Assembly (NCBI RefSeq): GCF_003385845.1
Contig: NZ_QRDJ01000009.1
Span: 186,001 to 250,000, forward strand
DNA length: 64,000 nt
Source: Kushneria indalinina DSM 14324
GTDB taxonomy: Bacteria; Pseudomonadota; Gammaproteobacteria; Pseudomonadales; Halomonadaceae
Direction: 5' to 3'
The position numbers were made by a program, and so were the translations under genes. The notes under the pieces are model-generated. The model saw only the letters and a list, made by a program, of their open reading frames with translations, was not told the DNA's origin and made no database searches. Positions 2,457 through 64,000 of this stretch are shown here, one piece after another; the stretch's first letter is position 1; the number at the start of each line of letters is the position of its first letter.

Positions 2457-2474
2457 CCTCGACCGGCCCGGCAC

Positions 2475-2509
2475 AAAAAACCGCCCCCGGCACTGCCGGG
2501 GGCGGTTTT
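2475..2509. terminator. Bidirectional rho-independent terminator
   Basis: GC-rich inverted repeat (ccgcccccggca / tgccgggggcgg) flanked by A-run on the left and T-run on the right. It lies between the GH3 gene and the convergent SDR gene and can serve both. Confidence 0.85.
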
Positions 2510-2535
2510 CAATTCGATCGAAGGGCCGTCATCGC

Positions 2536-3393
2536 CTAGTTGATGATGGCGCCGCCGTTGATGTGCAGCGAGTGGCCGCTGATATAGGAGGCGTCCTTCG
2601 AGGCCAGAAAGACGTAGGCCGGCCCAAGTTCGCTGGGCTGACCGGCACGGCCCATCGGCATCTTCTCGCCCAGGGTCTGCATCAGGGTCGGGTCGAAACG
2701 GCCCATGGTCGAAGGCTGAATCGGCGTCCAGATCGGCCCCGGGGCGACTTCGTTGACCCGAATGCCGTCACCGATCAATGACTCCGACAGCGAGCGGGTA
2801 AAGCCCGTAATCGCGCCCTTGGTCGAGGTGTAGGCCATCAGCATGGCGTTACCCACGAACGGATTGATCGAGGTGGTGTTGATGATGGTGTCGCCGGCCT
2901 TGAGATGCGACCGCACGGCCCTGGCCATATAGAAGTAGCCGTGAATATTGACGTCAAACGTCTCGCGCCACTCGTCATCGGGTATCTCGGTAATGTCCTG
3001 ACGCACCACCTGCGCGGCGGCATTGTTGACCAGGATGTTGATCGCGCCGAATTCCTTGAGCACCTGATCGACGGCCTGCTGGCAGAACGCGCTGTCGCGC
3101 ACATCGCCGCTGATCAGAAGCGCCCGGCGGCCTTCAGCTTCAATCAGGCGCTTCGTCTCTTCGGCGTCCTGCTGCTCGTCAAGATACATCACGGCCACGT
3201 CGGCCCCTTCACGGGCAAAATGCACCGCGGCGCTGCGACCGATGCCGCTGTCGCCACCGGTAATAATGGCCTTTTTGCCCTCGAGTTTGCCGCTGCCGCG
3301 ATAGTCGTCGCGAATGATCTCGGGGGGCGGCGTCATCTCGTGCTCGAACCCGGGCTGGCGATCCTGTGACTGCTTCGGAAACTGATCTGCCAT
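2536..3393 (-). CDS. Stress-type SDR oxidoreductase, paralogue 1 (YghA/GSP39-like)
   Basis: 285-residue NAD(P)-dependent short-chain dehydrogenase of the subgroup containing E. coli YghA and Bacillus general-stress protein 39. An N-terminal extension of about 45 residues (QDRQPGFEHEMTPPPE) precedes the Rossmann nucleotide-binding motif TGGDSGIGRS; the catalytic Ser lies in NTTSINPF and the Tyr-x3-Lys is AYTSTKGA. It ends SGHSLHINGGAIIN, typical of the subgroup. ATG 3393 is preceded by AAAAGGAGAT at good spacing; earlier in-frame starts lack this. Substrate unknown (aldehydes or sugars are possible). First of three paralogues between 2.5 and 6.6 kb; it lies 116 bases downstream of paralogue 2 on the same strand, so could share its transcript. 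Confidence 0.92.
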   Translation of the reverse strand: MADQFPKQSQDRQPGFEHEMTPPPEIIRDDYRGSGKLEGKKAIITGGDSGIGRSAAVHFAREGADVAVMYLDEQQDAEETKRLIEAEGRRALLISGDVRDSAFCQQAVDQVLKEFGAINILVNNAAAQVVRQDITEIPDDEWRETFDVNIHGYFYMARAVRSHLKAGDTIINTTSINPFVGNAMLMAYTSTKGAITGFTRSLSESLIGDGIRVNEVAPGPIWTPIQPSTMGRFDPTLMQTLGEKMPMGRAGQPSELGPAYVFLASKDASYISGHSLHINGGAIIN

Positions 3394-3509
3394 GGTCGAA
3401 ATCTCCTTTTCAAATGGCAAGACGACAGGTCGGCATTTTGTCCGCCTGCCGCCGGATACCTGACGATACGCACGGCCGGCTGGAGCCAACCCTGCAGGAG
3501 CGCACCCCG

Positions 3510-4373
3510 TCAGCCGTTGACGATCATGCCGCCGTTGACGTGGATGGTCTGACCGGTCACATAGCTGCTGTCTTGGCTTGCCAGGTACACATAGGCCGGA
3601 CCGAGTTCGGCGGGCTGGCCGGCGCGCCCCATGGGCGACTGGCTGCCGAAGTCCTCGACCATCTCTTCGTCATACTGCCCCATGGTGGAGGGGATCAGCG
3701 GCGTCCAGATCGGGCCAGGCGCGACCTGATTGACGCGGATGCCGTCACCGACGCACATCTTGGAGAGCGCGCGGGTAAAGCCGGCGTTGGCGCCCTTGGT
3801 GGTGGTGTAGGCCAGCAGATTGGCGTTGCCGGCAAAGGCGTTGACGGAGGTCGTGTTGATGACCGTGCCCTTTGTCTCGCGCAGATGCGGGATGGCCGCC
3901 TTGGCCATGTAAAAGTAGCCGTGGATGTTGACGTCAAAGGTCCGACGCCACTCCTCGTCCGAGGTTTCCTCGGGCCGGTCGTGCAGCACCTGCTGTGCGG
4001 CGTTGTTGACCAGCACATCCAGCTTGCCGAAGGTATCGACGACCTTCTGGACCGAGTTACGGCAGAAGTCGGCATCGGCCACATCACCGGCGATCAGCAG
4101 CGCCTGGCGGCCTTCGGCCTCGATCATCTGCTTCGTGGTCTCGGCATCGTCATGCTCGTCGAGATACATGACGGCCACATCGGCGCCTTCGCGCGCAAAA
4201 TGCACCCCCGCGGCGCGACCGATGCCGCTGTCACCACCGGTGACGATGGCCACCAGGTCCTGCATCTTGCCGCTGCCGCGATAGTTGTCGCGGATGAACT
4301 CGGCCGGCGGGGTCATCTCGCCTTCAACACCGGGCTGGCGATCCTGCTTCTGCGGGGGAATCTGTTCTGCCAT
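3510..4373 (-). CDS. Stress-type SDR oxidoreductase, paralogue 2
   Basis: 287-residue paralogue of the flanking SDRs, with the same N-terminal signature (QDRQPGVEGEMTPPAE), the cofactor motif TGGDSGIGRA, catalytic Ser in NTTSVNAF and Tyr-x3-Lys in AYTTTKGA. The start at 4373 follows AGGGAGA. About 95 bases upstream is a TCTACGCTTTAG element resembling a sigma-S extended -10, so stationary-phase or osmotic induction is likely. Cytosolic; electron donor NAD(P)H by family; substrate not predictable. The divergently transcribed neighbour is the TatD-family nuclease. Confidence 0.92.
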   Translation of the reverse strand: MAEQIPPQKQDRQPGVEGEMTPPAEFIRDNYRGSGKMQDLVAIVTGGDSGIGRAAGVHFAREGADVAVMYLDEHDDAETTKQMIEAEGRQALLIAGDVADADFCRNSVQKVVDTFGKLDVLVNNAAQQVLHDRPEETSDEEWRRTFDVNIHGYFYMAKAAIPHLRETKGTVINTTSVNAFAGNANLLAYTTTKGANAGFTRALSKMCVGDGIRVNQVAPGPIWTPLIPSTMGQYDEEMVEDFGSQSPMGRAGQPAELGPAYVYLASQDSSYVTGQTIHVNGGMIVNG

Positions 4374-4467
4374 GACGCAATCTCCCTGTCATTGGTTGGC
4401 CTGAAGCCAAATGTCATTGATGAATACGACCATCCGCTTCCTGCGTCAGCCGTATTCCGACGAATGT

Positions 4468-4479
4468 CTAAAGCGTAGA
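4468..4479 (-). promoter_or_regulatory. Sigma-S-like -10 element upstream of SDR paralogue 2
   Basis: Minus-strand TCTACGCTTTAG fits the sigma-S extended -10 (KCTAYRCTTAA) apart from the last bases. Expected start near 4464 gives a leader of about 90 bases. The same 12-mer occurs upstream of SDR paralogue 3. Confidence 0.5.
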
Positions 4480-4499
4480 CGCCACCACTTATCCTGCAA

Positions 4500-4527
4500 T
4501 TCACCCTTCGCTACAGGGCGCTACACT
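4500..4527 (+). promoter_or_regulatory. Putative promoter of the TatD-family gene
   Basis: TTCACC, 16-base spacer, TACACT, ending about 30 bases before the ATG at 4559. Partial match to sigma-70. Confidence 0.4.
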
Positions 4528-4558
4528 CCGCATGATCATTGTTGAGAGGAGCGCCGGT

Positions 4559-5335
4559 ATGAGCGCGCAATTTGTGGATACCCACTGCCATTTCGATTTC
4601 CCCCCGTTTGTCGGTGACGAAACGCAGAGCCTGCAGCGGGCGAAGGACGCCGGCGTCGAGAAAATCATTGCCGTCGGCGTCGCAGCAGATCGCTTTGCAG
4701 GCGTCATGGCGCTGGCCGAACGCCATGAACCGGTGTACGCCGCGCTCGGCGTCCACCCCATGGCCATCGGTGAATTCAAGGACGAGCATCTCGAAGAGCT
4801 GGACGCCTGGCTTAAACGGCGCCCCGACAAGCTGGTGGCCATCGGCGAAATCGGGCTGGACCTTTTCATCGATAACCCGCAGTTCGACCGGCAGGAGGCC
4901 TTGCTGGATGCCCAGCTGCGGCTGGCCCGCGACCATGACCTGCCGGTGATCCTGCATTCGCGGCGCACCCACGACAAGCTTGCCATGCATCTGCGACGCC
5001 TCGATGTGCCCCGGTGCGGCGTGGTGCACGGGTTTGCCGGCAGCGAGCAGCAGGCGCAGGCCTTTATCAGGGCGGGGTATTTTATCGGCGTGGGCGGCAC
5101 CATGACCTACGAGCGCGCCAGCAAGACCCGTCGCACCCTGGCGCGTCTGCCGCTGTCGTCACTGCTGCTGGAAACCGATTCGCCGGATATGCCCGTGCAG
5201 GGATTTCAGGGCGAGCCCAATCGCCCCGAGCGGATCAGACACATATGGCAGAGCCTGTGTGAACTTCGTGATGAATCGCCACAGGATATTGCTGACACCC
5301 TCCGCGACAACACCCGCCGGCTGTTTCATCTCTAG
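4559..5335 (+). CDS. yjjV: TatD-family metal-dependent hydrolase (YjjV-like)
   Basis: 258 residues, the normal length for TatD-family phosphoesterases/deoxyribonucleases. Metal ligands are visible in order: VDTHCHFDFPP (His9, His11), GEIGLDLF (Glu), ILHSRRTHDKLAMHL (His), VVHGFAGS (His) and LLETDSPDMP (Asp). The order and wording of these motifs match E. coli YjjV more closely than TatD or YcfH. ATG 4559 was preferred to the in-frame ATG 4532 because GAGAGGAG sits 7 bases upstream. It is a single gene read divergently from SDR paralogue 2 and convergently with paralogue 3. Role inferred from family: cytosolic 3'-5' nuclease or phosphoesterase in DNA housekeeping; not specifically demonstrated here. 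Confidence 0.93.
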   Translation: MSAQFVDTHCHFDFPPFVGDETQSLQRAKDAGVEKIIAVGVAADRFAGVMALAERHEPVYAALGVHPMAIGEFKDEHLEELDAWLKRRPDKLVAIGEIGLDLFIDNPQFDRQEALLDAQLRLARDHDLPVILHSRRTHDKLAMHLRRLDVPRCGVVHGFAGSEQQAQAFIRAGYFIGVGGTMTYERASKTRRTLARLPLSSLLLETDSPDMPVQGFQGEPNRPERIRHIWQSLCELRDESPQDIADTLRDNTRRLFHL

Positions 5336-5596
5336 GCCCGGATAGGAGCTGAAACGATCAGCCTCATCAATATTACGTAATTATTTTACGCATTTAATAA
5401 AAATACGAGTGCCTGAAATTTGATCAGAACAAAAACTGTTCGATTTCTGGCCATCAGAGCACAGTGAAAGACTCATTCGGCAGGTGTTTGCCCCAAAAAC
5501 ACGGCGATACCGAGATTTTGACGTGAAAAGGTACGATGACCACCGGTACCGTCGTTTTAAATAACGCTGTGGCTATCACTGATCTCTCATAAGAAC
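5336..5596. other. AT-rich intergenic stretch without a recognisable gene
   Basis: About 260 bases, more AT-rich than the surroundings, between the TatD-family gene and the terminator pair. A minus-strand reading frame at 5454-5702 runs through a terminator and has no ribosome-binding site. Nothing else could be supported, although an untranslated RNA ending at the following terminator is possible. Confidence 0.4.
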
Positions 5597-5630
5597 AGGG
5601 CGTACCTTCAGAGTACGCCCTTCCTTTTGA
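5597..5630 (+). terminator. Rho-independent terminator, plus strand
   Basis: Inverted repeat agggcgtac / gtacgccct with a 7-base loop, followed by tccttttg. It is 260 bases beyond the TatD-family stop codon. Confidence 0.6.
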
Positions 5631-5673
5631 CAAAAAAGCTTTCGCCCGGCCACAGCCAGTCGACGCAGGACAT

Positions 5674-5705
5674 AAAAAAACCCGCGCCACAGAGCGTGAC
5701 ACGGG
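5674..5705 (-). terminator. Rho-independent terminator of SDR paralogue 3
   Basis: On the minus strand CCCGTGTC pairs with GGCGCGGG (two G-U pairs) around a 9-base loop, followed by seven T residues. It is 38 bases beyond the SDR stop codon. Confidence 0.75.
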
Positions 5706-5742
5706 CGAAAGGTGTAATTTTAATCGTAAAATTTTTACACCG

Positions 5743-6588
5743 TTACGTATTAAGGATAACGCCGCCGTTGAGGTGGATGGTCTGGCCGTTCATGTAGGAC
5801 GACTCTTCGCTGGCCAGATAAACGTAGGCCGGTGCCATCTCGCTGGGCTGACCGGCACGATCCATGGGCACCTGCCCACCGAAGCCTTCCACCTTCTCTT
5901 CATCCATGGTGGCTGGAATCAGCGGTGTCCAGACCGGGCCTGGCGCCACAGCGTTGACGCGAATACCGCGCCCGACCAGCGACATGGCCATCGAGCGCAT
6001 GAAACCCTGAATGGCGCCCTTGGTCGCGGTGTAGTCGATCAGGGTGTTGTTGCCCTTGAAGGCGTTGACCGAGGAGCTCTCGATGATGCTGTCGCCCGCC
6101 TTCATGTGTGCCAGCGCGTGCCTGACCGTGTAGAAGTGACTGAAGATGTTGGTACGGAAGGTGCGCTCGATCTGCTCGTCGGGAATCTGGGTGATGTCGT
6201 CCCAGTCATGCTGTTCGGCGGCATTGTTGACCAGTATGTTGAGCCCGCCTAGCTCGCTGACGGTCCTGTCGATCATGTCACGGCAGAAGTCGGCATCGGC
6301 CACGTCGCCCTTCATCACGAGACAGCGCTGCCCTTCGGCCTCGACCAGCGCGCGGGTCTCCTCGGCATCCTCGTCCTCTGCCAGGTAGTTGATGGCAACA
6401 TCAGCGCCCTCGCGTGCATAGTGCACGGCCACCGCGCGACCGATGCCGCTGTCGCCCCCGGTGATCAGCGCGACCTTGCCCTTGAGCTTGTCAGTGCCCC
6501 GATAGCTGGCCCGGATATATTCGGGCTGCTGATCCATGCGCTCTTCATCACCCGGCTGTGACTGGGGTGCCTGGGTCGAATTGGCCAT
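5743..6588 (-). CDS. Stress-type SDR oxidoreductase, paralogue 3
   Basis: 281-residue member of the same SDR subgroup as paralogues 1 and 2 but more diverged (INYLAEDEDAEETRAL, closer in wording to E. coli YghA). Rossmann motif TGGDSGIGRA, catalytic Ser in ESSSVNAF, Tyr-x3-Lys in DYTATKGA and terminal NGQTIHLNGGVILNT are all intact. Start at 6588 follows AAAAGGAG with 8-base spacing. A TCTACGCTTTAG sigma-S-like -10 lies about 60 bases upstream, identical in 12 bases to that of paralogue 2. It has its own terminator, so forms a single-gene unit. Substrate unknown. Confidence 0.92.
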   Translation of the reverse strand: MANSTQAPQSQPGDEERMDQQPEYIRASYRGTDKLKGKVALITGGDSGIGRAVAVHYAREGADVAINYLAEDEDAEETRALVEAEGQRCLVMKGDVADADFCRDMIDRTVSELGGLNILVNNAAEQHDWDDITQIPDEQIERTFRTNIFSHFYTVRHALAHMKAGDSIIESSSVNAFKGNNTLIDYTATKGAIQGFMRSMAMSLVGRGIRVNAVAPGPVWTPLIPATMDEEKVEGFGGQVPMDRAGQPSEMAPAYVYLASEESSYMNGQTIHLNGGVILNT

Positions 6589-8007: not shown

Positions 8008-9048
8008 ATGAGTGCCCATCTGTTGTCCGTTGATAGTTTGTCCCGCGACTACGTCGATCACCTTTTTGATGTAGCGCGCCGCATGGAGCCCATCGCCCAG
8101 CGCCAGAAGATCACGCGGGTGCTGGAAGGCGCCGTGCTGGGCAATCTCTTTTTCGAGGCCAGTACCCGGACGCGCATGAGCTTTCACTCAGCCTTCAGCC
8201 GGCTGGGCGGCAGCGTCTGTGACACCACCGGCTTCACCTTCTCCTCGATGGCCAAGGGCGAATCACTGTATGACACCAGCCGTGTGATCAGCGGCTATGT
8301 CGATGCCATCGTCATGCGCCACCCCGATCTGGGCTCGGTGGCGGAGTTTGCCGCGGCCACCCACGTGCCGGTCATCAACGGCGGTGACGGCCCGGGCGAG
8401 CATCCCAGTCAGGCGCTGCTGGATCTCTATACCATCAACAAGGAGTTCGAGCGGCTGGACAAGAAGCTTGCCGGCGCGCATCTGCTGCTGACCGGTGACC
8501 TCAAGTACGGGCGTACCGTGCATTCGCTGTTGAAGCTATTGTCGCTCTATTCGCCGATGCAGATCACGCTGGTCTCGCCCCCCGGCCTCGAGATGCCCTC
8601 TGACCTGATCGACCGGGCCGAGAATGCCGGCCATCGGGTCCAGCAGCGCGATACCCTGCAGGCCGATTTCAGTGACGTGGACGTGGTGTATGCCACGCGC
8701 ATTCAAAAGGAGCGCTTTACCCAGGAGATGGTGGAAGGCTTCAGTCTGTCCAGCGACTTCAGCGTCGATCGCGCCTTTCTGGATCAGCGCTGCAGCCCCC
8801 ATACCATCGCGATGCATCCGCTGCCGCGTGACAGCCGACCCGGCGCCAACGATCTCAACGTGGATCTCAACGGCGATCCGAGACTGGCGATCTTTCGCCA
8901 GACCGACAACGGCATTCCGGTGCGCATGGCGATCTTTGCCACGCTCATGGGGGTGGACGAGATTTTCGATCGGGATCTGCGAGAAGTGGGCTGGCAGCCG
9001 CCGCGCCGGGTCGGGGTCGACGATGCCGACTTTACGATACTGAAGTAA
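8008..9048 (+). CDS. pyrB: Aspartate carbamoyltransferase catalytic chain
   Basis: Catalyses carbamoyl phosphate + L-aspartate to N-carbamoyl-L-aspartate, the committed step of pyrimidine synthesis. The carbamoyl-phosphate loop FEASTRTRMSFHSAF, the MRHPD segment and HPSQALLDLYTI are visible, and the aspartate-side segment MHPLPRD follows near residue 270. At 346 residues it is about 35 longer than E. coli PyrB, with extra C-terminal sequence (QPPRRVGVDDADFTILK). No pyrI regulatory-chain gene or pyrC follows, so a regulatory partner, if any, lies elsewhere. Start ATG 8008 follows GAGGCGAG. No neighbour is functionally related. Confidence 0.95.
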   Translation: MSAHLLSVDSLSRDYVDHLFDVARRMEPIAQRQKITRVLEGAVLGNLFFEASTRTRMSFHSAFSRLGGSVCDTTGFTFSSMAKGESLYDTSRVISGYVDAIVMRHPDLGSVAEFAAATHVPVINGGDGPGEHPSQALLDLYTINKEFERLDKKLAGAHLLLTGDLKYGRTVHSLLKLLSLYSPMQITLVSPPGLEMPSDLIDRAENAGHRVQQRDTLQADFSDVDVVYATRIQKERFTQEMVEGFSLSSDFSVDRAFLDQRCSPHTIAMHPLPRDSRPGANDLNVDLNGDPRLAIFRQTDNGIPVRMAIFATLMGVDEIFDRDLREVGWQPPRRVGVDDADFTILK

Positions 9049-9085
9049 GTCATCACTTACCCCAGAGCTCTATAGAAATGGGACT

Positions 9086-9117
9086 CTGCAGCACCAGGGA
9101 CCTGCAGCACCAGGGGC
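9086..9117. repeat. 16-bp tandem duplication between pyrB and ruvX
   Basis: Two head-to-tail copies of ctgcagcaccagggac (second copy ends gggc; 15 of 16 bases identical) in the convergent gap. Confidence 0.8.
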
Positions 9118-9129
9118 CTGAAAGAGTGA

Positions 9130-9594
9130 TCAGCGGGGCGAGGGGATGTCGAGCCGGGTGCCGCCGGCCTGCTGTTCAAACCAGCCGGCAAGAATCAGTT
9201 CGGCGGCGATGCCGTCAACGCCGTGCTCGCGATAGTTGCCCTTGTGGCCTTCTTCGCGGGCAATGGCCTTGGCGGCGCGGGTGGTGCCGCGCTCATCGAA
9301 CATTTCCAGCGGTTTGCCAAAACGGCCGTGCAGCCGCTTGCCGAACTTGCGCGCGCGCAGGCTCATTTCGGACTCGGTGTCGTCCATGTTGAGCGGCAGG
9401 CCGACCACGAACATATCGGGCTGCCACTCCTTGATCAGCCGAGTGATCACGTCCCAGTCGGGGATGCCGTCACGCGCCGGCAGCGCCTCCAGCGCCGAGG
9501 CCGAGCCCAGCAGCTCATTGCCCACCGCGACGCCAATGCGGCGTACGCCGAAGTCAAAGGCCAGCACCAGCCGCTGACCGGGCGTATCAGCCAT
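9130..9594 (-). CDS. ruvX: RuvX/YqgF RNase H-fold nuclease
   Basis: 154-residue YqgF-family protein with an RNase H-like fold, implicated by family in 16S rRNA 5'-end maturation and as a Holliday-junction-resolvase-like nuclease. Visible motifs: LAFDFGVRRIGVAVG (first catalytic Asp), VVGLPLNMD, FDERGTTRAA (Glu), and the C-terminal HGVDGIAAELIL (final Asp). ATG 9594 was chosen: GTGAGG lies just upstream, and it overlaps the yqgE stop by 8 bases, indicating translational coupling. An in-frame GTG at 9606 is less likely. Confidence 0.94.
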   Translation of the reverse strand: MADTPGQRLVLAFDFGVRRIGVAVGNELLGSASALEALPARDGIPDWDVITRLIKEWQPDMFVVGLPLNMDDTESEMSLRARKFGKRLHGRFGKPLEMFDERGTTRAAKAIAREEGHKGNYREHGVDGIAAELILAGWFEQQAGGTRLDIPSPR

Positions 9595-10144
9595 GGCCGG
9601 CCTCACGCGACAGCAGGCTCAGGTCAACGCCCAGATGGCTCGCAGCGGTTTCAAGACGCGCCGGGGCCGGGGTTCGAAAGAGCACCTCGTCGCTGGCCTC
9701 CACGGTCAGCCAGGTGTTGTCCTTGATCTCCTGGGCCAGCTGGTCGGGCTCCCAGCCCACGCAGCCCAGACAGATCAAAAACTGCTCGGGGCCACGGCCG
9801 GCGGCAATGGCATGCAGAATGTCCATCGACGTGGTGAGCGCCCGGTTCTCTCCGGTGCGGATGCTGGAGTCCCAGTGTTCGGGGCTGCCGGCGTGCAGAA
9901 TAAAGCCGCGCTCACGATGTACCGGGCCGCCGTTGAGCACCGGCGTTTCCAGTGACGGGCAGTCGCTGGCATCAATTTCGAGCTGCTCGAACAGCGCCTC
10001 CAGCGTCAGCTCCATGGGCTGGTTGAGCTTGAGCCCCAGTGTGCCGTTGTCGTCATGGTCGCAGATATAGGTCAGCGAGCCCGCAAAGTTTTCGTCTTCG
10101 AGATGCGGCATCGCCATGAGAAAGTTATCGCGCAAGCCTTGCAT
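9587..10144 (-). CDS. yqgE: YqgE/AlgH family protein (UPF0301, DUF179)
   Basis: 185-residue cytosolic protein of the YqgE/AlgH family, function not settled. Family landmarks are present: FLMAMPHLEDENFAGSLTYI near the N terminus, GTLGLKLNQP and the GGPVHRERGFILH signature near residue 90, plus CLGCVGWEPDQLAQEI toward the C terminus. GGGAGG precedes ATG 10144. It is upstream of and overlaps ruvX, an arrangement conserved across gammaproteobacteria, and gshB follows the same orientation further upstream (155-base gap). Confidence 0.94.
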   Translation of the reverse strand: MQGLRDNFLMAMPHLEDENFAGSLTYICDHDDNGTLGLKLNQPMELTLEALFEQLEIDASDCPSLETPVLNGGPVHRERGFILHAGSPEHWDSSIRTGENRALTTSMDILHAIAAGRGPEQFLICLGCVGWEPDQLAQEIKDNTWLTVEASDEVLFRTPAPARLETAASHLGVDLSLLSREAGHG

Positions 10145-10298
10145 GGGCCTCCCGGATAGTAACGCAAGCAGGCGCCCCCGCCGGCAGGCAGGGGCGCGAT
10201 CGATGGGTCATGAGGTGTCGTTACCTGTCGACACCCGGCCGCCGAAAGCGGCTGATGGGTGCATGGTAACACTGGCGGGCCAGCGTGACGTCAACAAC

Positions 10299-11258
10299 TC
10301 AGGTGAAGCGTCGCTCGATGGCATCCATCAACATGCCGGCAATATCGGTGCCCTTCTGGGCATCGATTTCACGCACGCAGGTGGGGCTGGTGACGTTGAT
10401 TTCGGTCACGTAGTCCCCGATCACATCAAGCCCCACAAAGATCAGTCCCAGCGACTTGATGGAGTCCTTGACCTGATCGACCAGCCAGTAGTCGCGATCA
10501 GTCAGCTCACGCGCCTCGCCCCGGCCACCGGCGGCCAGGTTGCCGCGCACCTCGCCGGCCGAGGGAATGCGCGCCAGACCATAGGGCACCGGCTCACCGT
10601 CGATCAGCAGGATGCGGGTATCGCCCTGGCTGATCTCGGGAATATAGCGCTGCGCCATGATCTGTTCGGTGCCGCGCCGGGTCAGCTGCTCGATGACCGA
10701 GCCGATGTTGCGACCGTCCGGGGCGATATGAAAGATACCGGTGCCGCCCATGCCATCCAGCGGCTTGAAGATGGTATCGCCGTGTTCGGCATGAAATTCA
10801 CGCAGCACGCCGTCATTGCAGGAGACCACGGTCGGCACCAGACACTGGGGGAACTGCTGGGCGTAGAGCTTCTCGTTGCAGGTCAAAAGCGCCTGGGTCG
10901 GATTGACCACCAGCACGCCTTCGCGCTCGGCAAAGCCCAGCAGATGCACCGCGTTGGTGAAATTGACATCCACCGGCGGGTCCTGACGCATCAGGATCAC
11001 GTCCATATCCGCCAGCGGCCCGGCTTCGACGTCACCGAGGGTGTAATAGTGCGCGGGGTCGTTTTCGAACACCTCAAGCGCGCGCAGACGCCCCATGGCG
11101 CGCCCGTCCTTGAGGTAAAGATCCCCCGGCTCAAGGTAATGAAGCGTGTGACCACGCCGTTTGGCCGCCCACAGCATCGCCAGTGTGGTGTCCTTTTTCC
11201 AGGCGATGTTGGCGATGGGATCCATGACCACCGCGATCTTCAATGCACGTTCACTCAT
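10299..11258 (-). CDS. gshB: Glutathione synthetase
   Basis: 319-residue ATP-grasp enzyme that joins gamma-glutamylcysteine and glycine to make glutathione. N-terminal domain MDPIANIAWKKDTTLAML and MRQDPPVDVNF, ATP-grasp segment FKPLDGMGGTGIF, and the metal/ATP site near the C terminus (YVTEINVTSPTCVREID) are typical of bacterial GshB, as is length (E. coli 316). TGGAG precedes ATG 11258. gshB-yqgE-ruvX on one strand matches the order in E. coli and pseudomonads and may be one operon. Confidence 0.96.
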   Translation of the reverse strand: MSERALKIAVVMDPIANIAWKKDTTLAMLWAAKRRGHTLHYLEPGDLYLKDGRAMGRLRALEVFENDPAHYYTLGDVEAGPLADMDVILMRQDPPVDVNFTNAVHLLGFAEREGVLVVNPTQALLTCNEKLYAQQFPQCLVPTVVSCNDGVLREFHAEHGDTIFKPLDGMGGTGIFHIAPDGRNIGSVIEQLTRRGTEQIMAQRYIPEISQGDTRILLIDGEPVPYGLARIPSAGEVRGNLAAGGRGEARELTDRDYWLVDQVKDSIKSLGLIFVGLDVIGDYVTEINVTSPTCVREIDAQKGTDIAGMLMDAIERRFT

Positions 11259-11454
11259 TTAAAACTCCAGAACACGGCCGTGTGATGTTATGGCAGCCGT
11301 CCATGGCGCCAGTATGACGCAAGCCTCATCCTTCGACCATGGCCGACCCCGCCGCTTTCCCGTTTGCCGGGTTGTTCTTTCCAATCGCAGGCATGGCCGG
11401 AAACTATCAGGATAACGCGACTGACCGACTAGACTTTCGTGGTACAAGCCATCG

Positions 11455-11488
11455 CTGAACCCAAATCATTACTGAACCCGGGTCATTA
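11455..11488. repeat. 17-bp tandem duplication in the gshB / reductase gap
   Basis: ctgaacccaaatcatta followed directly by ctgaacccgggtcatta (14 of 17 identical), then a partial third copy (ctgaatca). It lies 30-65 bases before the reductase start, in its expected leader. The rest of the 262-base gap shows only a possible -10 (TAGACT, about 11430). Confidence 0.75.
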
Positions 11489-11520
11489 CTGAATCACGGC
11501 GTTCAGCCAGGAGGACCTTC

Positions 11521-12654
11521 ATGTCATCGATTTTTGAACCCTTTGATCTTGCCGGCATTCATCTCGACAACCGCGTGGTCATGGCGCCCATGACCCGTTC
11601 GCGGGCGCCCGGCGACATCCCCACCGAAATGGGCGCGCTCTACTACCGCCAGCGCGCCAGTGCCGGGCTGATCATCTCCGAAGGCACCCCGGTGTCGCGT
11701 CAGGGCACCGGCTATCTCTATAACCCGGGCATTTATGGCCCCGATCAGATCGAGGGCTGGAAAAAGGCCACCCGCGCCGTTCACGAGCGCGGCGGTGTCT
11801 TTTTCGCCCAGATCTGGCATGTCGGGCGCGTGTCGCATACCACCGTCCAGATTGCCGGTGGCGCACCGGTGGGCCCGAGCGAGCAGCCCGGCGGCATGGC
11901 GTTTGGCTATAACGAGCAGGGCACGCCCGATATGCTCAATGCCAGTACGCCGCGCCGACTCGAGACCAGTGAAGTGCGCGATATCGTGCGCGATTTCGCC
12001 CAGGCTGCCGTCAATTCACGCGAGGCCGGCTTTGACGGCGTCGAGATTCACGGGGCCAACGGCTATCTCTTCGAGCAGTTCTTGAACCCGGGCGTCAACG
12101 ACCGTGATGACCAGTACGGCGGCTCGCGGGAGAACCGCTGCCGTCTGCTGCTGGAAGTCGTCGATGAGGTCAGCGCGCTGATCGGTGCCCACCGGGTCGG
12201 TGTGCGCCTGTCGCCGCACGGCACACTCTTTGACATGCCGGAGTACGACGACAACGGCGAGACCTATCTGCATCTGGCACGCGAATTCAACAAGCGCGGG
12301 CTGTCCTACGTGCACCTGCACGACCAGGGCGGTCAGGGCATGCCGCCGATGCCGCGCGACTATCTGCGCCGGTTCCGCAAGGTCTATGACGGCAACCTGC
12401 TGCTGGCCGGTAACCTCGACCAGGCCGAGGCCGAGAAGCTGGTCAATGAAGGCACCATCGATCTGCCGGTCTTCGGGCGTCTCTACACCTCGAACCCGGA
12501 CCTGGTCGAGCGGATGAAAAACGACTGGCCGCTGGCCGAGTTTGATCCGTCCACCTTCTACGGCGGCGATGCCCGCGGTTATGTGGACTTCCCGACGTAT
12601 CAGGAAGAGCAGGAGCGTCAGGCGCGCCAGCAGCTGATCGACGAGAAAAGCTGA
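11521..12654 (+). CDS. Old yellow enzyme, NemA-type alkene reductase
   Basis: 377-residue FMN-dependent NAD(P)H oxidoreductase of the N-ethylmaleimide-reductase branch, reducing activated C=C bonds in enones, maleimides or nitrate esters. FMN-side N terminus NRVVMAPMTRSRA, active-site His/Asn pair in EIHGANGYLFEQFLNP, and DQYGGSRENRCRLL followed by a phosphate-binding segment (VFGRLYTSNPDLVERM) are visible. AGGAGG precedes ATG 11521; a terminator follows. Single gene. Paralogous only at fold level to the YqjM-type enzyme at 60.1 kb. Probably electrophile detoxification. Confidence 0.92.
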   Translation: MSSIFEPFDLAGIHLDNRVVMAPMTRSRAPGDIPTEMGALYYRQRASAGLIISEGTPVSRQGTGYLYNPGIYGPDQIEGWKKATRAVHERGGVFFAQIWHVGRVSHTTVQIAGGAPVGPSEQPGGMAFGYNEQGTPDMLNASTPRRLETSEVRDIVRDFAQAAVNSREAGFDGVEIHGANGYLFEQFLNPGVNDRDDQYGGSRENRCRLLLEVVDEVSALIGAHRVGVRLSPHGTLFDMPEYDDNGETYLHLAREFNKRGLSYVHLHDQGGQGMPPMPRDYLRRFRKVYDGNLLLAGNLDQAEAEKLVNEGTIDLPVFGRLYTSNPDLVERMKNDWPLAEFDPSTFYGGDARGYVDFPTYQEEQERQARQQLIDEKS

Positions 12655-60025: not shown

Positions 60026-60122
60026 TTCGATGATCACCATCGATTTTGATAGCGGGCTAATGGCCTTGGCCTGTGCCAGACTCATGACATCTGTTGGACC
60101 CGACCTTCAAAGGAAAACCGCA

Positions 60123-61229
60123 ATGCCCTCCCCTCGTCTTTTTGAACCCCTGAAGCTTGGCAATCTTGAACTGCCCAATCGCATTCTGATCGCGCCGATG
60201 TGTCAGTACTCGGCACAGGACGGCAATGCCACCGACTGGCATACCATCCATCTCGGCCATCTGGCGCTCTCGGGCGCCGGCCTGTTGATTCTGGAAGCCA
60301 CGGCAGTGTCGCCGGAAGGCCGTATCAGCCCTGACGACCTGGGGCTCTGGAACGATGACAACGAACAGGCGCTGAAGCAGACGCTGGACGCCGTACGCAG
60401 GAATTCGGACATGGCACTGGGTATCCAGCTCGGTCATGCCGGTCGCAAGGCCTCCGCGCATGTGCCGTGGGAAGGCGGGGCACAGATCGCGCCTGACGAG
60501 CCGCGCGGCTGGCAGACCGTGGCCCCTTCAAACGTTGCCTACAGCGAAGAAGAAAACGCCCCGCACGCCCTCTCCCTTGATGAGATTCAGGAGGTTCGCG
60601 AGCAGTTCAGGCGCGCCGCCGAGCGCTCGGCGCGTCTGGGCATCGAGGCGATCGAGATTCACGCTGCCCACGGCTATCTGCTGCACCAGTTCCTCTCGCC
60701 GCTGTCCAATCAGCGCAGTGATCAGTACGGCGGCAGTCTGGAAAACCGCATGCGCCTGACGCTCGAGATCTTTGATGGCGTTCGGGACGTCTTCCCGCAG
60801 GAGCGCCCGGTGGGGATACGCATCTCCGCCACGGACTGGGCGGACGGCGGTTGGAGCATTGAGGAGAGCCAGGCACTGGCGAAAGAACTGGATGCCCGGG
60901 GCTGCTGCTTCATCCACGTCTCCAGTGGCGGGCTGACCTCAAACCAGCAGATTCCGGTCGGCCCGAGCTATCAGGTGCCGCTGGCGCGCGCCATCGGTGA
61001 GGTCGTAACCATGCCGACCATTGCCGTGGGGATGATCACCGAGCCGGAACAGGCAGAAGCCATTGTGGCCACCGGTGATGCCGATGCGATCGCTCTGGCC
61101 AGAACCATGCTGTATAACCCGCGTTGGCCATGGCATGCCGCCGCCGCGCTGGGCGCGCAGGTGACAGCGCCGAATCAGTATCTGCGCTCACAGCCGCATC
61201 AGTACAAGGATCTGTTTTTGAATCAGTAG
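60123..61229 (+). CDS. YqjM/XenA-type old yellow enzyme
   Basis: 368-residue FMN-dependent reductase of the thermophilic-like branch of OYE. The Cys of IAPMCQYSAQDG replaces the Thr of classical OYE; HAAHGYLLHQFLSP gives the His-His substrate pair; SDQYGGSLENRMRL and ALARTMLYNPRWPWHAA bind FMN. AAAGGAAAA precedes ATG 60123; a longer frame from 60030 lacks it. Single gene; terminator follows. Acts on enones or nitro-compounds. Confidence 0.93.
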   Translation: MPSPRLFEPLKLGNLELPNRILIAPMCQYSAQDGNATDWHTIHLGHLALSGAGLLILEATAVSPEGRISPDDLGLWNDDNEQALKQTLDAVRRNSDMALGIQLGHAGRKASAHVPWEGGAQIAPDEPRGWQTVAPSNVAYSEEENAPHALSLDEIQEVREQFRRAAERSARLGIEAIEIHAAHGYLLHQFLSPLSNQRSDQYGGSLENRMRLTLEIFDGVRDVFPQERPVGIRISATDWADGGWSIEESQALAKELDARGCCFIHVSSGGLTSNQQIPVGPSYQVPLARAIGEVVTMPTIAVGMITEPEQAEAIVATGDADAIALARTMLYNPRWPWHAAAALGAQVTAPNQYLRSQPHQYKDLFLNQ

Positions 61230-61236
61230 AGTTATA

Positions 61237-61263
61237 AAAAGAGGCTACCCTGTAGCCTCTTTC
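61237..61263. terminator. Bidirectional terminator
   Basis: aaaagaggcta / tagcctctttc hairpin between the convergent OYE and acyltransferase genes. Confidence 0.8.
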
Positions 61264-61268
61264 AAATA

Positions 61269-61991
61269 TCATTGCGCCACTTCATCACCCATGCTTTCTA
61301 AAACAATATTATTCAAGTCTTCAGCGGTATAACTTACCTGCTTTTTAAACTCACTCATGATCCCCAGGAACGCAGGCGACATGGTGGCTAAAGTAGTACG
61401 TGTATTTAAGTAATGCGCTGCACGAATGCCGCAAACATCATGATCTTCACTAACTTTCTTGACCTGTAGACCCATGATCGACAACAAACGGGCAAAATTT
61501 GTTTCTAAAAAGCAGATCATGTGAGGTCGATCAAGTATGTCGAGCAACACAGCCACATAGGCATACAACCCTGGAGTGATTAACCTGTTTGTCATGGTGC
61601 TGGAAGAGGACTTTCTAAAATCATTAGCGACAACTATACGAGAAACCTCACATATTTTTTCACGCGAGATAGATGAAACATCTATCTCGTCATTATAGAG
61701 ATTCATACCACAATGATCTTCTACTGGAAGTTTCTCATATCGTGACGCCACGGGTAAGACTATTCGAGTGCATCCTGCTATTCTTCCTGTATGCCTGCAG
61801 ATAACAGCTAGAGGAATAGCATGATTATCATGTAAATCTTTTTCCTGGCCGTCTAATAACGATTCTGAAAGCTTATAACCCAACTCTTGTAAAAAAACCT
61901 TATACCTTAAACTATAAACAGAAAATCTGTCCTCATTGGACGATGCAACCCTTACTTCAAAATCAAGAAAAAACCTTTCTACGATATCCAT
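61269..61991 (-). CDS. PEP-CTERM/exosortase-associated (FeeM-like) N-acyltransferase
   Basis: 240-residue GNAT-fold protein related to FeeM and acyl-homoserine-lactone synthases. SVYSLRYKVFLQELGY is the family's N-terminal signature, CTRIVLP and EVSRIVVANDF the core. Expected to acylate an amino acid from acyl-ACP or acyl-CoA. ATG 61991 with GAGAG upstream was chosen; ATG 62012 is possible but would overlap the upstream gene. AT-rich (28-48% GC by line) versus about 65% for the rest of the window. Seven bases after the GGDEF-EAL gene, so cotranscribed. Product unknown. No exosortase genes in view. Confidence 0.82.
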   Translation of the reverse strand: MDIVERFFLDFEVRVASSNEDRFSVYSLRYKVFLQELGYKLSESLLDGQEKDLHDNHAIPLAVICRHTGRIAGCTRIVLPVASRYEKLPVEDHCGMNLYNDEIDVSSISREKICEVSRIVVANDFRKSSSSTMTNRLITPGLYAYVAVLLDILDRPHMICFLETNFARLLSIMGLQVKKVSEDHDVCGIRAAHYLNTRTTLATMSPAFLGIMSEFKKQVSYTAEDLNNIVLESMGDEVAQ

Positions 61992-61998
61992 AACACTC

Positions 61999-63999
61999 TC
62001 ATATGACTTCATCTGAAATTATATTTCTCTCAGGGCGCCCTAAATAATAACCTTGCGCATAAGTAACCCCATATGAATCCAATATACTAAGCATATCTTT
62101 ATTATCGACAAACTCTGCAATAACTAACTTTCCAAAACCATGAGCAATATCAGCAATTGATTTGACGATCAACCGATCCTTATCGTCACGCAACATATTT
62201 TGAACGAATGACCCGTCAATTTTTATATAATTTGATGGCAATTGATCGAGATAATGAAAACTGCTGAAACCTACCCCAAAGTCATCCAGTGCTATTTGAC
62301 AGCCCAGTTCACTAATCTCCTGAAGCACATTCCTTGCGGCAGCCAGATCGGCAACTGCCGCTGTCTCCGTAATTTCGACAATAATGCGAGAAGGGCAAAC
62401 GCCATTATTTTTTATCTCGTTTTCGAGAAAGTGTTTAATGGATTCGTCATGCAGGGATTGACCTGAAAGATTAATAGCAAGACTAATTTGCTTATCTTTG
62501 AAAACGCTCAGCAAGGTAATGGCCTCCCTGACAACCCAGCGATCTATCTCGACAATCAATCCAAAACGCTCTGCCACGGGTATAAAGGCACCCGGCATAT
62601 GAAGCGTACCATTCTCATCCTGCATTCTTAGCAGAACTTCATAATGTTTCACGCTGAAGTCATCGATACGAACAATTGGCTGAAACATCAGCATGAACCG
62701 GTCGGCAGCCAGTGAGGAACGGATAAGCTCGACCCAGTAGGCCCTTTCCTGCAGCTGTTCTCTGGATTCATGTATAGAGGAAAGCAGATGCCATTTTTGC
62801 GTACTCTTTTCCTTGGCCTTGTACATGGCAAGATCAGCACTGGCCATCAGGTCCGTCTCGTTATCCCCATGCTCGGGATACAGTGCAATGCCGATACTCG
62901 CCATGGCTCGATGATGACGCCCGCCTTCCGAAAACAGGATCCCTTCAAGCCTCTCATGAACTTTTTCTGCGACGCCCACAGCCTCCTGCGCACCAGCCGC
63001 TTCCAGAAGAATGGAAAATTCGTCCCCCCCCTGGCGGGCCACGATGCACTCTCCGGCAAGCTCACTACTCAGGGCATCTGCCACCAGACGTAACAGCTGA
63101 TCACCGGCATGATGGCCTCCCAGCTCATTAACCATTTTGAATTGATCAAGGTCCAGATACAGCACGGCGCCGTAAGCACCCCGTCCGATAACAGCTTCGA
63201 GCGATTGCTGGAAAAAACGTCGGTTATAAAGAGAGGTTAATGGATCACGATGTGCCAGCCATTCCAGCTGCTGCTCGGCTTTCTTGCGCGCCGAGATATC
63301 AAGACCGACGGAGATGCGTTGAGCGGTTCTATCGTTGCCACCCATGGCCGTGTGGACCCAGGTAATGATCTTTTCTTCATGTCGTGCCCCTCTAACAACA
63401 CTTTCATGCTGTCCGGTCGAGTGATTTAACGTTCGAGCATGATGATGAAAGATATCCCTGAATCGTTGCCCGACAAGCTGGTCCTTTTCCATACCCAGCA
63501 CTTCAAGCGCATATTGATTTACCAGCGTAATACGCCCATCGCTGTCCTGAGTAAAAATAAGCACATGGGCCGTATTCAAAAGACCGGTGATGAAGTCTCT
63601 TTCATGAGAGAGCTCTACAAGCCTTTCATTCAGCTGCCTGCCCTTTAGATCGACTTCTCCTTCGAGTATTTCCAGCTGATTGGCCAGTTTCTGAGTCGTC
63701 TGCCCCAACACATCGATTTCATCGTGCCATAATCCATTTTTCGTGTTCGCATGCTGACGAATCTTTTCAAAGCCGCCCTGAGCCAATACTGGCAACAGGT
63801 ACGTAAGACGCCTTAGCCTCGCCATGGGACGCCACATGATTCCAAAAAGTAAAATTTCAGCGATTAACCATCCACTCAGTGCAATCAACAATGTATAGCT
63901 CGTTGTGCGGTTGATATTGCTGATCTGGTCACTAACATCCGAGGTTAATATAAAATAACCCTTGCTACTTTCTTCTTCGGCCTCGATGGGCATGGCCAA
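61999..63999 (-). CDS. PAS-GGDEF-EAL c-di-GMP enzyme, N terminus beyond the window
   Basis: 666 residues visible, missing its N terminus beyond the right edge. One membrane helix (YTLLIALSGWLIAEILLFGI; about 35-54), a HAMP-like/coiled stretch, a PAS domain (about 135-245), GGDEF (about 250-410; motif RQGGDEF intact, no RxxD inhibitory site seen) and EAL (about 425-660; HYEVLLR for EAL, NLSGQSL, EITETAA, DDFGVGFSS, YIKIDGSF, AEFVDN, AQGYYLG). Catalytic residues for both cyclase and phosphodiesterase look present. Probably membrane sensor with periplasmic input. Overall AT-rich toward the C terminus. Cotranscribed with the acyltransferase. Confidence 0.93.
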   Translation of the reverse strand: MAMPIEAEEESSKGYFILTSDVSDQISNINRTTSYTLLIALSGWLIAEILLFGIMWRPMARLRRLTYLLPVLAQGGFEKIRQHANTKNGLWHDEIDVLGQTTQKLANQLEILEGEVDLKGRQLNERLVELSHERDFITGLLNTAHVLIFTQDSDGRITLVNQYALEVLGMEKDQLVGQRFRDIFHHHARTLNHSTGQHESVVRGARHEEKIITWVHTAMGGNDRTAQRISVGLDISARKKAEQQLEWLAHRDPLTSLYNRRFFQQSLEAVIGRGAYGAVLYLDLDQFKMVNELGGHHAGDQLLRLVADALSSELAGECIVARQGGDEFSILLEAAGAQEAVGVAEKVHERLEGILFSEGGRHHRAMASIGIALYPEHGDNETDLMASADLAMYKAKEKSTQKWHLLSSIHESREQLQERAYWVELIRSSLAADRFMLMFQPIVRIDDFSVKHYEVLLRMQDENGTLHMPGAFIPVAERFGLIVEIDRWVVREAITLLSVFKDKQISLAINLSGQSLHDESIKHFLENEIKNNGVCPSRIIVEITETAAVADLAAARNVLQEISELGCQIALDDFGVGFSSFHYLDQLPSNYIKIDGSFVQNMLRDDKDRLIVKSIADIAHGFGKLVIAEFVDNKDMLSILDSYGVTYAQGYYLGRPERNIISDEVI

Positions 64000-64000
64000 T

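What the first reader, a model, noticed from the sequence alone, without database searches (positions are those of the whole stretch)
61269..63999. AT-rich acyltransferase + GGDEF-EAL pair
Sample lines at 61861 and 62041 are about 28-30% GC versus about 67% at 47041. The two genes are 7 bases apart. One would make an N-acyl compound (FeeM-like), the other controls c-di-GMP. A cotranscribed signal-synthase/c-di-GMP pair of foreign composition could be a horizontally acquired signalling unit.
Basis: partly seen in the sequence, partly recalled or inferred. Interest (0 to 1): 0.5.

Follow-up and report, generated by a model that had tools for sequence, protein, structure and literature searches.

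The report
Acyltransferase and porin swapping together
A small bacterial operon that probably makes a fatty-acid-linked compound and controls c-di-GMP exchanges two of its parts, the compound-making enzyme and the outer face of a surface porin, as matched sets between species, which suggests that the porin is fitted to that one compound.

Summary
In detail: two AT-rich minus-strand genes, an acyltransferase with the AHL-synthase/FeeM fold and a dCache_3-PAS-GGDEF-EAL protein. They are the 3' half of a four-gene operon running off the window: short PBP-like protein, porin, GGDEF-EAL sensor, acyltransferase. The genome groups with Kushneria. The pair is no recent two-gene acquisition: the 20 acyltransferase-positive family genomes examined all carry the operon, and seven of ten genomes of the genus (this one included) carry it beside the same gene, AT-rich in each.

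The novel part came from relatives. In close sister operons (GGDEF at least 85% identical) the acyltransferase is often another allele, commonly about 40% identical. One porin segment (aa 176-300, predicted extracellular loops L4-L6) then differs too: 98 of 102 close pairs agree, and 85 of 87 in a held-out set. Similarity to outside lineages shifts in parallel for acyltransferase and porin segment, not for the sensor between them.

I read this as a matched synthase-porin specificity pair, exchanged by homologous recombination. A pherotype-like N-acyl signal read out as c-di-GMP is the favoured but unproven function; an export channel or surface variation remain open. Product and ligand are unknown. 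Interest 0.72.

The parts
61269..61991 (-). Acyltransferase (TIGR03694 / Acetyltransf_5; AHL-synthase and FeeM fold); alternative upstream start at 62012
   Evidence: R36, E57, D59, D62, R83, E122, S124, R125 invariant in 77 of 77 loci
61999..64000 (-). 3' part of the dCache_3-PAS-GGDEF-EAL sensor gene; the gene goes on beyond the window to window-equivalent 64785 (ATG) or 64821 (TTG)
   Evidence: GGDEF and EAL residues intact
61230..64000 (.). Part inside the window of the AT-rich polymorphic cassette. It begins at about 61230 (3' end of the OYE gene) and reaches to about window-equivalent 65700 inside the porin gene. The porin gene (L009 4822-6051) and the PBP-like gene (L009 6020-6454) lie outside the window (L009 position = window position minus 60000)
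   Evidence: GC profiles; DNA identity profile over 7 same-genus loci; protein identities
61230..62204 (-). Most divergent and most AT-rich island: end of the EAL domain plus the acyltransferase. DNA identity to the nearest same-class loci L039/L040 falls here from 69-82% (rest of cassette) to 50-61%
60030..61229 (+). Flanking OYE-type flavin oxidoreductase, normal GC; neighbour of the operon in seven of ten genomes of the genus

Best explanation
It is the 3' half of a conserved four-gene operon: PBP-like periplasmic protein, 16-strand outer-membrane porin, inner-membrane dCache_3-PAS-GGDEF-EAL protein, and an acyltransferase with the fold of AHL and FeeM synthases. Shown by sequence: the operon is conserved; the acyltransferase and one porin segment (predicted extracellular loops L4-L6 with strands 6-11) are replaced repeatedly by divergent alleles that keep the conserved active-site residues; and these two, although separated by the sensor gene of about 2.8 kb, change together and share ancestry across lineages. 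Inferred: they form a matched specificity pair, the enzyme deciding which N-acyl compound is made and the porin segment deciding which one is bound or passed at the cell surface; the PBP-like protein and the dCache sensor then report the compound to the GGDEF/EAL domains, so that a cell responds to its own type of compound by changing c-di-GMP (a pherotype-like signal). In this Kushneria the cassette, sensor included, belongs to one of two allele classes held at the same chromosomal site, and its acyltransferase end is a further allele of unknown donor.
For: All four genes in 20 of 20 acyltransferase-positive family genomes, all parts in 74 of 80 named loci (of the other six, five end at a contig end, and one, L119, is a true truncation) and in order in 79 of 80 further loci (the other, L215, is at a contig end). 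Allele replacement: among 90 close pairs (GGDEF >= 88%) the acyltransferase is below 60% in 53; porin, PBP and all sensor domains in none. DNA profiles of six pairs show two islands of low identity, porin middle and acyltransferase, with the sensor higher between them. Coupling: in 102 close pairs, acyl < 60 goes with porin segment < 65 in 55 of 63, acyl >= 75 with porin segment >= 75 in 32 of 32; 98 of 102 concordant, and with each locus used once (about 25 pairs) median Fisher p 5e-7, worst 5e-4. Sister-difference test: median rho 0.69, positive in 61 of 63, for the porin segment; about 0 for PBP, porin N-part, dCache, PAS, GGDEF and EAL; 0.25 for the porin C-part. Likelihoods: for porin-segment data the acyl tree is 252 lnL units worse than its own, against 1072 for the adjoining porin N-part tree and 1279 for the sensor tree; for acyl data the porin-segment tree is 463 worse, the sensor tree 2251. 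Held-out set: 85 of 87 concordant, sister test positive 55 of 55, median rho 0.78. Outside the family: an acyltransferase of the same kind beside the PBP-porin genes in 8 of 20 class-wide loci, in several arrangements, and a PF21926 FeeM-family enzyme right after the sensor in 3 of 20.
Against: No product, ligand or phenotype is known. The dCache domain does not covary with the acyltransferase in the first set (partial rho -0.14; sister test -0.03) and only weakly in the held-out set (partial 0.33, sister test -0.03), so type-specific sensing by it is not supported. In 9 of 20 class-wide loci I detected no acyltransferase beside the PBP-porin genes. Discordant pairs exist: 4 of 102 and 2 of 87. 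Porin-segment and acyl trees still reject each other in AU tests (trees from a quick search), so the shared history is not perfect; the porin N-part also shows partial correlation (0.49 and 0.55). Pairs share loci and are not independent. In the window's own genus the sensor was replaced together with the rest between the two allele classes, and L009 against L039 is only a borderline case (porin segment 69%, acyl 46%).
Confidence: 0.5

Rival explanations
1. Matched pair for export, not signalling: the porin segment passes or releases the specific N-acyl compound (surfactant, aminolipid or antibacterial), and the GGDEF-EAL protein only couples production to biofilm state.
For: Relatives of the enzyme make N-acyltyrosines with surfactant and antibiotic activity (PMC4897644, passages) and 30 N-acyl amides in Neisseria (PMC9762135, passages); the dCache sensor does not covary with the enzyme.
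Against: Non-specific release would not need the porin type to match the enzyme type; in the family loci read here the sensor gene sits between the two.
Confidence: 0.25
2. Surface variation under phage or predator pressure: porin loops L4-L6 are a receptor site and change by recombination; the acyltransferase changes with them because its product masks or modifies the same surface.
For: Variation is strongest in predicted extracellular loops L4-L6 (23-30% identity in 63 swapped pairs, 74-86% in 32 kept pairs), while L3 is 97-99% identical.
Against: Does not by itself explain why a cytoplasmic enzyme shares ancestry with the loops while the gene between them does not.
Confidence: 0.15
3. The porin-acyltransferase match is an evolutionary by-product: both are merely fast-evolving, or whole operons are imported and the sensor later homogenised, without any functional fit.
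For: Whole-cassette replacement including the sensor is seen in Kushneria; the sensor is similar enough between sisters to recombine.
Against: Enzyme identity of 38% between flanks of 84-97% DNA identity (L085/L129) cannot be point divergence; within each band of dCache identity, swapped pairs have porin-segment medians 40-60 and kept pairs 82-98; single-island recombinants should be as easy to make but are rare (6 discordant of 189 close pairs over both sets).
Confidence: 0.1
4. Recently acquired foreign two-gene signalling unit.
For: AT-rich block (acyltransferase 0.398, sensor part 0.473) in a window of 0.639; cassette identity of 93-100% between L045 and L048 against 69-95% in the flanks shows transfer at this site.
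Against: Four genes, not two; same flanking gene in seven of ten genomes of the genus and widespread in the family. Lower GC of the acyltransferase is common in the operon: mean -0.10 against flanks over 78 loci, with 58 of 78 below -0.05 and 4 above 0.
Confidence: 0.05

Closest known systems
FeeM and TIGR03694 N-acyl amino acid synthases (Nas343/Nas354, Neisseria NmNAT, Methylomonas ExoAT)
   Same: Fold (2g0b chains, TM by target length 0.75-0.79), TIGR03694 score above cut-off (117 against 111.95), invariant acidic and basic residues. A c-di-GMP link has a precedent in NAS-PilZ fusions (PMC4897644, passages).
   Different: No exosortase in the genome; operon with porin, PBP-like protein and GGDEF-EAL protein; allele exchange matched to a porin segment. 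In the passages I saw of PMC4897644, PMC9762135 and PMC11072679 no such operon is described.
LuxI-type AHL synthases
   Same: Top structural hits are AHL synthases TofI, RpaI, LasI and MesI.
   Different: PF00765 score 21.7, below its cut-off of 24, and no other match in the genome. A LuxR partner was not looked for. PMC4187203 (passages) reports AHL activity in 43 Halomonadaceae species and LuxI fragments amplified from 29 of them.
NspS-MbaA polyamine system of Vibrio cholerae
   Same: Periplasmic binding protein gene beside a periplasm-sensing GGDEF-EAL (EVL) protein that reads a 'self/other' small molecule into c-di-GMP (PMC8079147, passages); here the EAL motif is EVL in 58 of 77 loci.
   Different: There the ligand is a polyamine. 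Here: a short PBP_like_2-type protein (22.6 bits, below its cut-off of 27), a dCache_3 sensor, a porin and an acyltransferase in the same operon.
Pherotype systems such as comQXPA (recalled, from no call)
   Same: Signal-making gene and its partner are polymorphic together between conserved flanks.
   Different: Peptide signals and histidine kinase receptors in Gram-positives; here an acyltransferase and a porin segment, with the inner-membrane sensor not covarying.

Membership tests
TIGR03694 acyltransferase subfamily | Score above the curated cut-off | tested here: met
   117 against 111.95 bits; TIGR03694 matched by 20 of 20 family members at E <= 0.001
TIGR03694 acyltransferase subfamily | Genome with an exosortase, as the family name implies | tested here: not met
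   PF09721: no match at E <= 0.001 in the own genome
FeeM (PF21926) | Score above the gathering cut-off | tested here: not met
   24.2 against 27 bits
FeeM-like N-acyl amino acid synthase | Same fold | tested here: met
   AlphaFold model pLDDT 88; 2g0b chains E 3e-7 to 4e-6, TM by target 0.75-0.79
FeeM-like N-acyl amino acid synthase | Makes N-acyl amino acids | not testable with these tools
   Needs expression and LC-MS
LuxI (PF00765) | Score above the gathering cut-off | tested here: not met
   21.7 against 24 bits; 21.5 in the genome search
Dual GGDEF-EAL c-di-GMP enzyme | Intact GGDEF motif and EAL catalytic residues | tested here: met
   R-x-GGDEF intact in 76 of 77 loci (one D to G); eight EAL residues 77 of 77 (choice of residues recalled)
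Dual GGDEF-EAL c-di-GMP enzyme | Makes or breaks c-di-GMP | not testable with these tools
   Needs an enzyme assay or reporter
16-stranded porin | 16-stranded barrel with a long inward loop L3 | tested here: met
   Model with 16 strands, pLDDT 81; porin hits in the PDB. The L3 region itself is modelled with low confidence (10-residue blocks 46-58)
Pherotype-like signal system | Polymorphic synthase matched to a polymorphic partner between conserved parts | tested here: met
Pherotype-like signal system | Product of the synthase acts on the cognate partner only | not testable with these tools
   Needs strains, product and reporter

The most novel reading that the evidence does not exclude
A Gram-negative pherotype system in which the type-specific partner of a small-molecule N-acyl synthase is an outer-membrane porin: synthase and porin loop segment circulate among species as matched haplotypes under balancing selection, and a shared PBP/dCache/GGDEF-EAL relay turns recognition of the own compound into c-di-GMP.
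Probability: 0.35. Interest if true: 0.9.

Novelty: new variant of a known kind. Interest (0 to 1): 0.72.

Why it matters
[quoted passage not shown] A matched porin partner and a c-di-GMP protein in one operon make that question directly testable. It would also be a small-molecule signal or secretion system whose specificity sits in an outer-membrane channel, and a case in which two separated gene segments are kept in step through repeated recombination.

Tried and rejected
Considered and rejected: PEP-CTERM/exosortase sorting (no exosortase match); a mobile element with a tRNA target (no tRNA found in the window or in L009/L010); an operon private to this genome; co-variation of the acyltransferase with the dCache sensor, my first pherotype idea, which the data did not support.

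Led nowhere or was faulty: the scan of named genomes with the acyltransferase alone found no relative; the first dCache identities were wrong because fragments of the domain match were compared, and were redone with whole sensors; one search gave no hits, apparently because two of my reference coordinates were out of frame (changed); one search stopped on a coding error after printing its main results and was completed; one search failed, the cause (thread setting) was seen, and it was rerun. Class-wide neighbourhoods: of 78 genomes with a PBP match (three of them in the family) I fetched the 20 best-scoring others and gave Pfam only chosen neighbours, so acyltransferases further away or unlike my models may be missed.

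Rows dropped: of the 80 named loci, eight were left out of the comparison (L103, L105, L119, L133, L138, L140, L141, L146: contig ends, truncation or broken frames); seven unnamed loci were added (79), and two (L040, L100) were dropped from the sensor comparison for split sensor frames (77). Held-out set: 80 fetched, 79 complete, 42 kept because their acyltransferase end was not identical to one of the first set. The porin segment 176-300 and the cut-offs were chosen on the first set and then fixed. Held-out loci come from the same family, so they are not fully independent. Single-use matchings were made for the first set only.
Full report
WHAT IS THERE. The window is G000:C4:186001-250000. 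Following the contig to the right (L009 position = window position minus 60000) shows that the pair is the 3' half of a compact minus-strand operon: PBP-like protein of 144 aa (L009 6020-6454), porin-like protein of 409 aa (4822-6051), sensor of about 930-940 aa (1999-4785 or 4821), acyltransferase (1269-1991 or 2012). Neighbouring genes overlap or nearly touch. The flanking genes are an OYE flavoprotein and a DksA-like protein.

PROTEINS. Acyltransferase: Acetyltransf_5 (1e-13), TIGR03694 above cut-off, FeeM and Autoind_synth below cut-off. Its AlphaFold model (pLDDT 88) matches AHL synthases (TofI, E 2e-9) and FeeM 2g0b (TM by target length 0.75-0.79). Residues R36, E57, D59, D62, R83, E122, S124 and R125 are invariant in 77 of 77 loci although the median pair identity is 37%, so the divergent alleles look like working enzymes. 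Sensor: dCache_3, PAS, GGDEF and EAL, motif residues intact. Porin: Porin_O_P match below cut-off, model with 16 strands (pLDDT 81), general porin hits in the PDB. PBP-like protein: PBP_like_2 below cut-off. The genome gave no exosortase match, and its only Autoind_synth match is this acyltransferase, below cut-off.

DISTRIBUTION. The acyltransferase was found in 25 of 58 genomes, this one included: 20 of 37 in the family and 5 of 21 outside it; in the genus 9 of 10. All 20 positive family genomes have PBP, porin, sensor and acyltransferase together (the sensor is split into two frames in L040 and L055). Of six regions read from the five positive genomes outside the family (L058-L063) none showed PBP, porin or sensor; two of these are contigs of about 7 kb, and in L062, at a contig start, my ORF scan did not recover the acyltransferase either. 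A scan of named genomes with the PBP alignment gave 162 relatives, of which the best 80 were kept; their titles name Kushneria, Halomonas, Vreelandella, Billgrantia, Salinicola and other genera that I recall as Halomonadaceae. 74 of the 80 have all six parts; L119 is a real truncation and five end at contig ends. 158 of 260 family genomes have the PBP gene at E <= 1e-50. In the class, 78 of 369 genomes have a PBP match at E <= 1e-8. Of 20 neighbourhoods fetched, 8 have an acyltransferase of this kind beside the PBP-porin genes (upstream in L178, L179, L181, L182, L194; divergent in L180, L185; after an inverted sensor in L188); of these L178 and L182 end at a contig start before the sensor, and L194 shows no sensor. 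In 3 more (L186, L189, L191) a PF21926 FeeM-family enzyme follows the sensor. In 9 none was detected. Two different N-acyl synthase families beside the same PBP-porin-sensor genes support a functional link. In L066, a family genome without an acyltransferase hit, sensor and PBP are kept but the porin frame is 184 aa.

HORIZONTAL EXCHANGE AT A FIXED SITE. Seven of ten genomes of the genus carry the operon next to the same OYE gene (the DksA side of L048 lies beyond its contig end), two carry it elsewhere and one lacks it. Between allele classes A (L009, L039, L040) and B (L045, L046, L048, L053) the flanking DEAD, MFS, DUF2183, DksA, OYE and UbiH proteins and the PBP are 84-97% identical, MTase, PgeF and DUF924 73-88%; the porin is 56-60%, dCache part 36-40%, PAS 45-50%, GGDEF 60-65%, EAL 55-57% and acyltransferase 25-30%. 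L045 and L048 are 93-100% identical in DNA through the cassette and 69-95% (median window 83) in the flanks, a sign of recent allele transfer. The acyltransferase is AT-rich in all seven same-site loci (GC 0.40-0.49). Over 78 loci of the family it averages 0.10 below its flanks, the PBP 0.03; in finer parts the end of the EAL domain (-0.110), the acyltransferase (-0.099) and the porin middle and end (-0.078, -0.072) are lowest, GGDEF -0.035 (76 loci). So low GC follows the exchanged parts rather than one recent arrival. The acyltransferase of L009 has no close relative among the 77 loci (best 46%, L039; next 35%).

THE UNEXPECTED RESULT. Among 90 pairs with GGDEF >= 88% the acyltransferase is below 60% in 53; PBP, porin and the sensor domains in none. 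DNA profiles of six pairs show a second island in the middle of the porin gene. In five of the six the sensor between the islands is mostly 78-95% identical (falling to 72% at its very end); in L078/L126 it is 56-82%. Flanks are high in most windows but fall off upstream in L078/L126, downstream in L107/L115 and L112/L115, and at the far upstream end in L127/L139. In L085/L129 the borders are sharp: porin start 81-98%, porin middle 38-79%, sensor 86-97% up to its last codons, acyltransferase 31-62%, downstream 80-93%, with windows of 66 and 19% at the sensor-acyltransferase junction.

COUPLING. Close pairs are those with GGDEF >= 85 and EAL >= 80: 102 pairs, 53 loci, 16 groups. Acyl < 60 (63 pairs) goes with porin segment (aa 176-300) < 65 in 55, 65-75 in 6, >= 75 in 2; acyl 60-75 (7 pairs) with segment >= 75 in 6; acyl >= 75 (32 pairs) with segment >= 75 in 32. 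98 of 102 are concordant, 4 not; two of the groups hold 57 of the 63 swapped pairs, so the number of independent swaps is well below 63, and single-use matchings leave about 25 pairs (median Fisher p 5e-7). Partial rank correlation with the acyltransferase: segment 0.81, porin C-part 0.61, porin N-part 0.49, PBP 0.25, dCache -0.14, PAS -0.01. Within each band of dCache identity the contrast stays. Sister-difference test: for the 63 swapped pairs, the difference in similarity to outsiders is shared by acyltransferase and segment (median rho 0.69, 61 of 63 positive; 13 single-use pairs, median p 0.0012) and weakly by the porin C-part (0.25, 57 of 63); the other parts are near zero. Over distant pairs (GGDEF < 80, 2771 pairs) the partial correlations are 0.30 for the segment and 0.26 for dCache, so at that depth the segment does not stand out from the sensor. 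Tree likelihoods: the porin segment fits the acyltransferase tree far better than the tree of the adjoining porin N-part or of the sensor, and vice versa, although every foreign tree is rejected. Held-out set of 42 loci, same cut-offs: 87 close pairs; of 55 swapped, 53 have segment < 65 and 2 >= 75; of 26 kept, 23 have >= 75 and 3 have 65-75; 85 of 87 concordant; sister test 55 of 55 positive, median rho 0.78, porin C 0.16, porin N 0.11, PAS 0.08, the rest between -0.03 and 0.02; partial correlations segment 0.87, porin C 0.57, porin N 0.55, dCache 0.33.

WHERE IN THE PORIN. In swapped pairs L4, L5 and L6 are 30, 23 and 25% identical (kept pairs 86, 74, 83), L3 97% (99), L7 62% (86); strands 6-11 are replaced too, more at presumed lipid-facing positions except in strand 9. 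Sidedness was inferred from the order of strands and from hydrophobicity, not from coordinates.

HOW IT MOST LIKELY WORKS. Shown: conserved operon, enzyme with intact conserved residues, exchange of enzyme and porin segment as matched sets. Inferred: the enzyme sets the compound, the porin segment fits it at the surface, and the PBP-like protein with the dCache GGDEF-EAL protein reports to c-di-GMP. The lack of dCache covariation among close relatives means that type specificity, if this is signalling, sits in the porin and the relay is common to the types. Precedents seen in papers: NAS-PilZ fusions, and a NAS activated by cAMP as cited there (PMC4897644, passages); a Methylomonas NAS mutant that no longer forms the same polysaccharide band, restored by complementation (PMC11072679, passages; whether that gene lies in such an operon I did not check); NspS-MbaA as a self/other cue system (PMC8079147, passages).

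NOVELTY. My literature searches (held open-access papers only, listings of capped length read) showed no title or abstract start describing this operon or a synthase-porin match. Craig et al. 2011, the paper that links these synthases to exosortases, was not held. Absence from print is therefore not established.

Noticed in passing
L066 (G031) 8329-12172: Family member with PBP and sensor kept, no acyltransferase hit, and the porin frame only 184 aa: porin and acyltransferase seem to have decayed together.
   Followed up: partly
L119 (Vreelandella nigrificans) 9679-11784: Sensor cut to 701 aa without the EAL domain and no acyltransferase, porin frame intact (429 aa).
   Followed up: partly
L186 5722-6426, L189 5868-6641, L191 6828-7715: PF21926 FeeM-family synthases directly after the same kind of sensor in other gammaproteobacteria, i.e. 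a different synthase family in the same place.
   Followed up: partly
L058 10319-13099: Outside the family a similar acyltransferase stands next to a ThiF/nitroreductase-like protein, perhaps another natural-product context.
   Followed up: no
L105, L138: Operons of two Halomonas records called complete genomes with porin and sensor in broken frames; real decay or sequencing error not decided.
   Followed up: no
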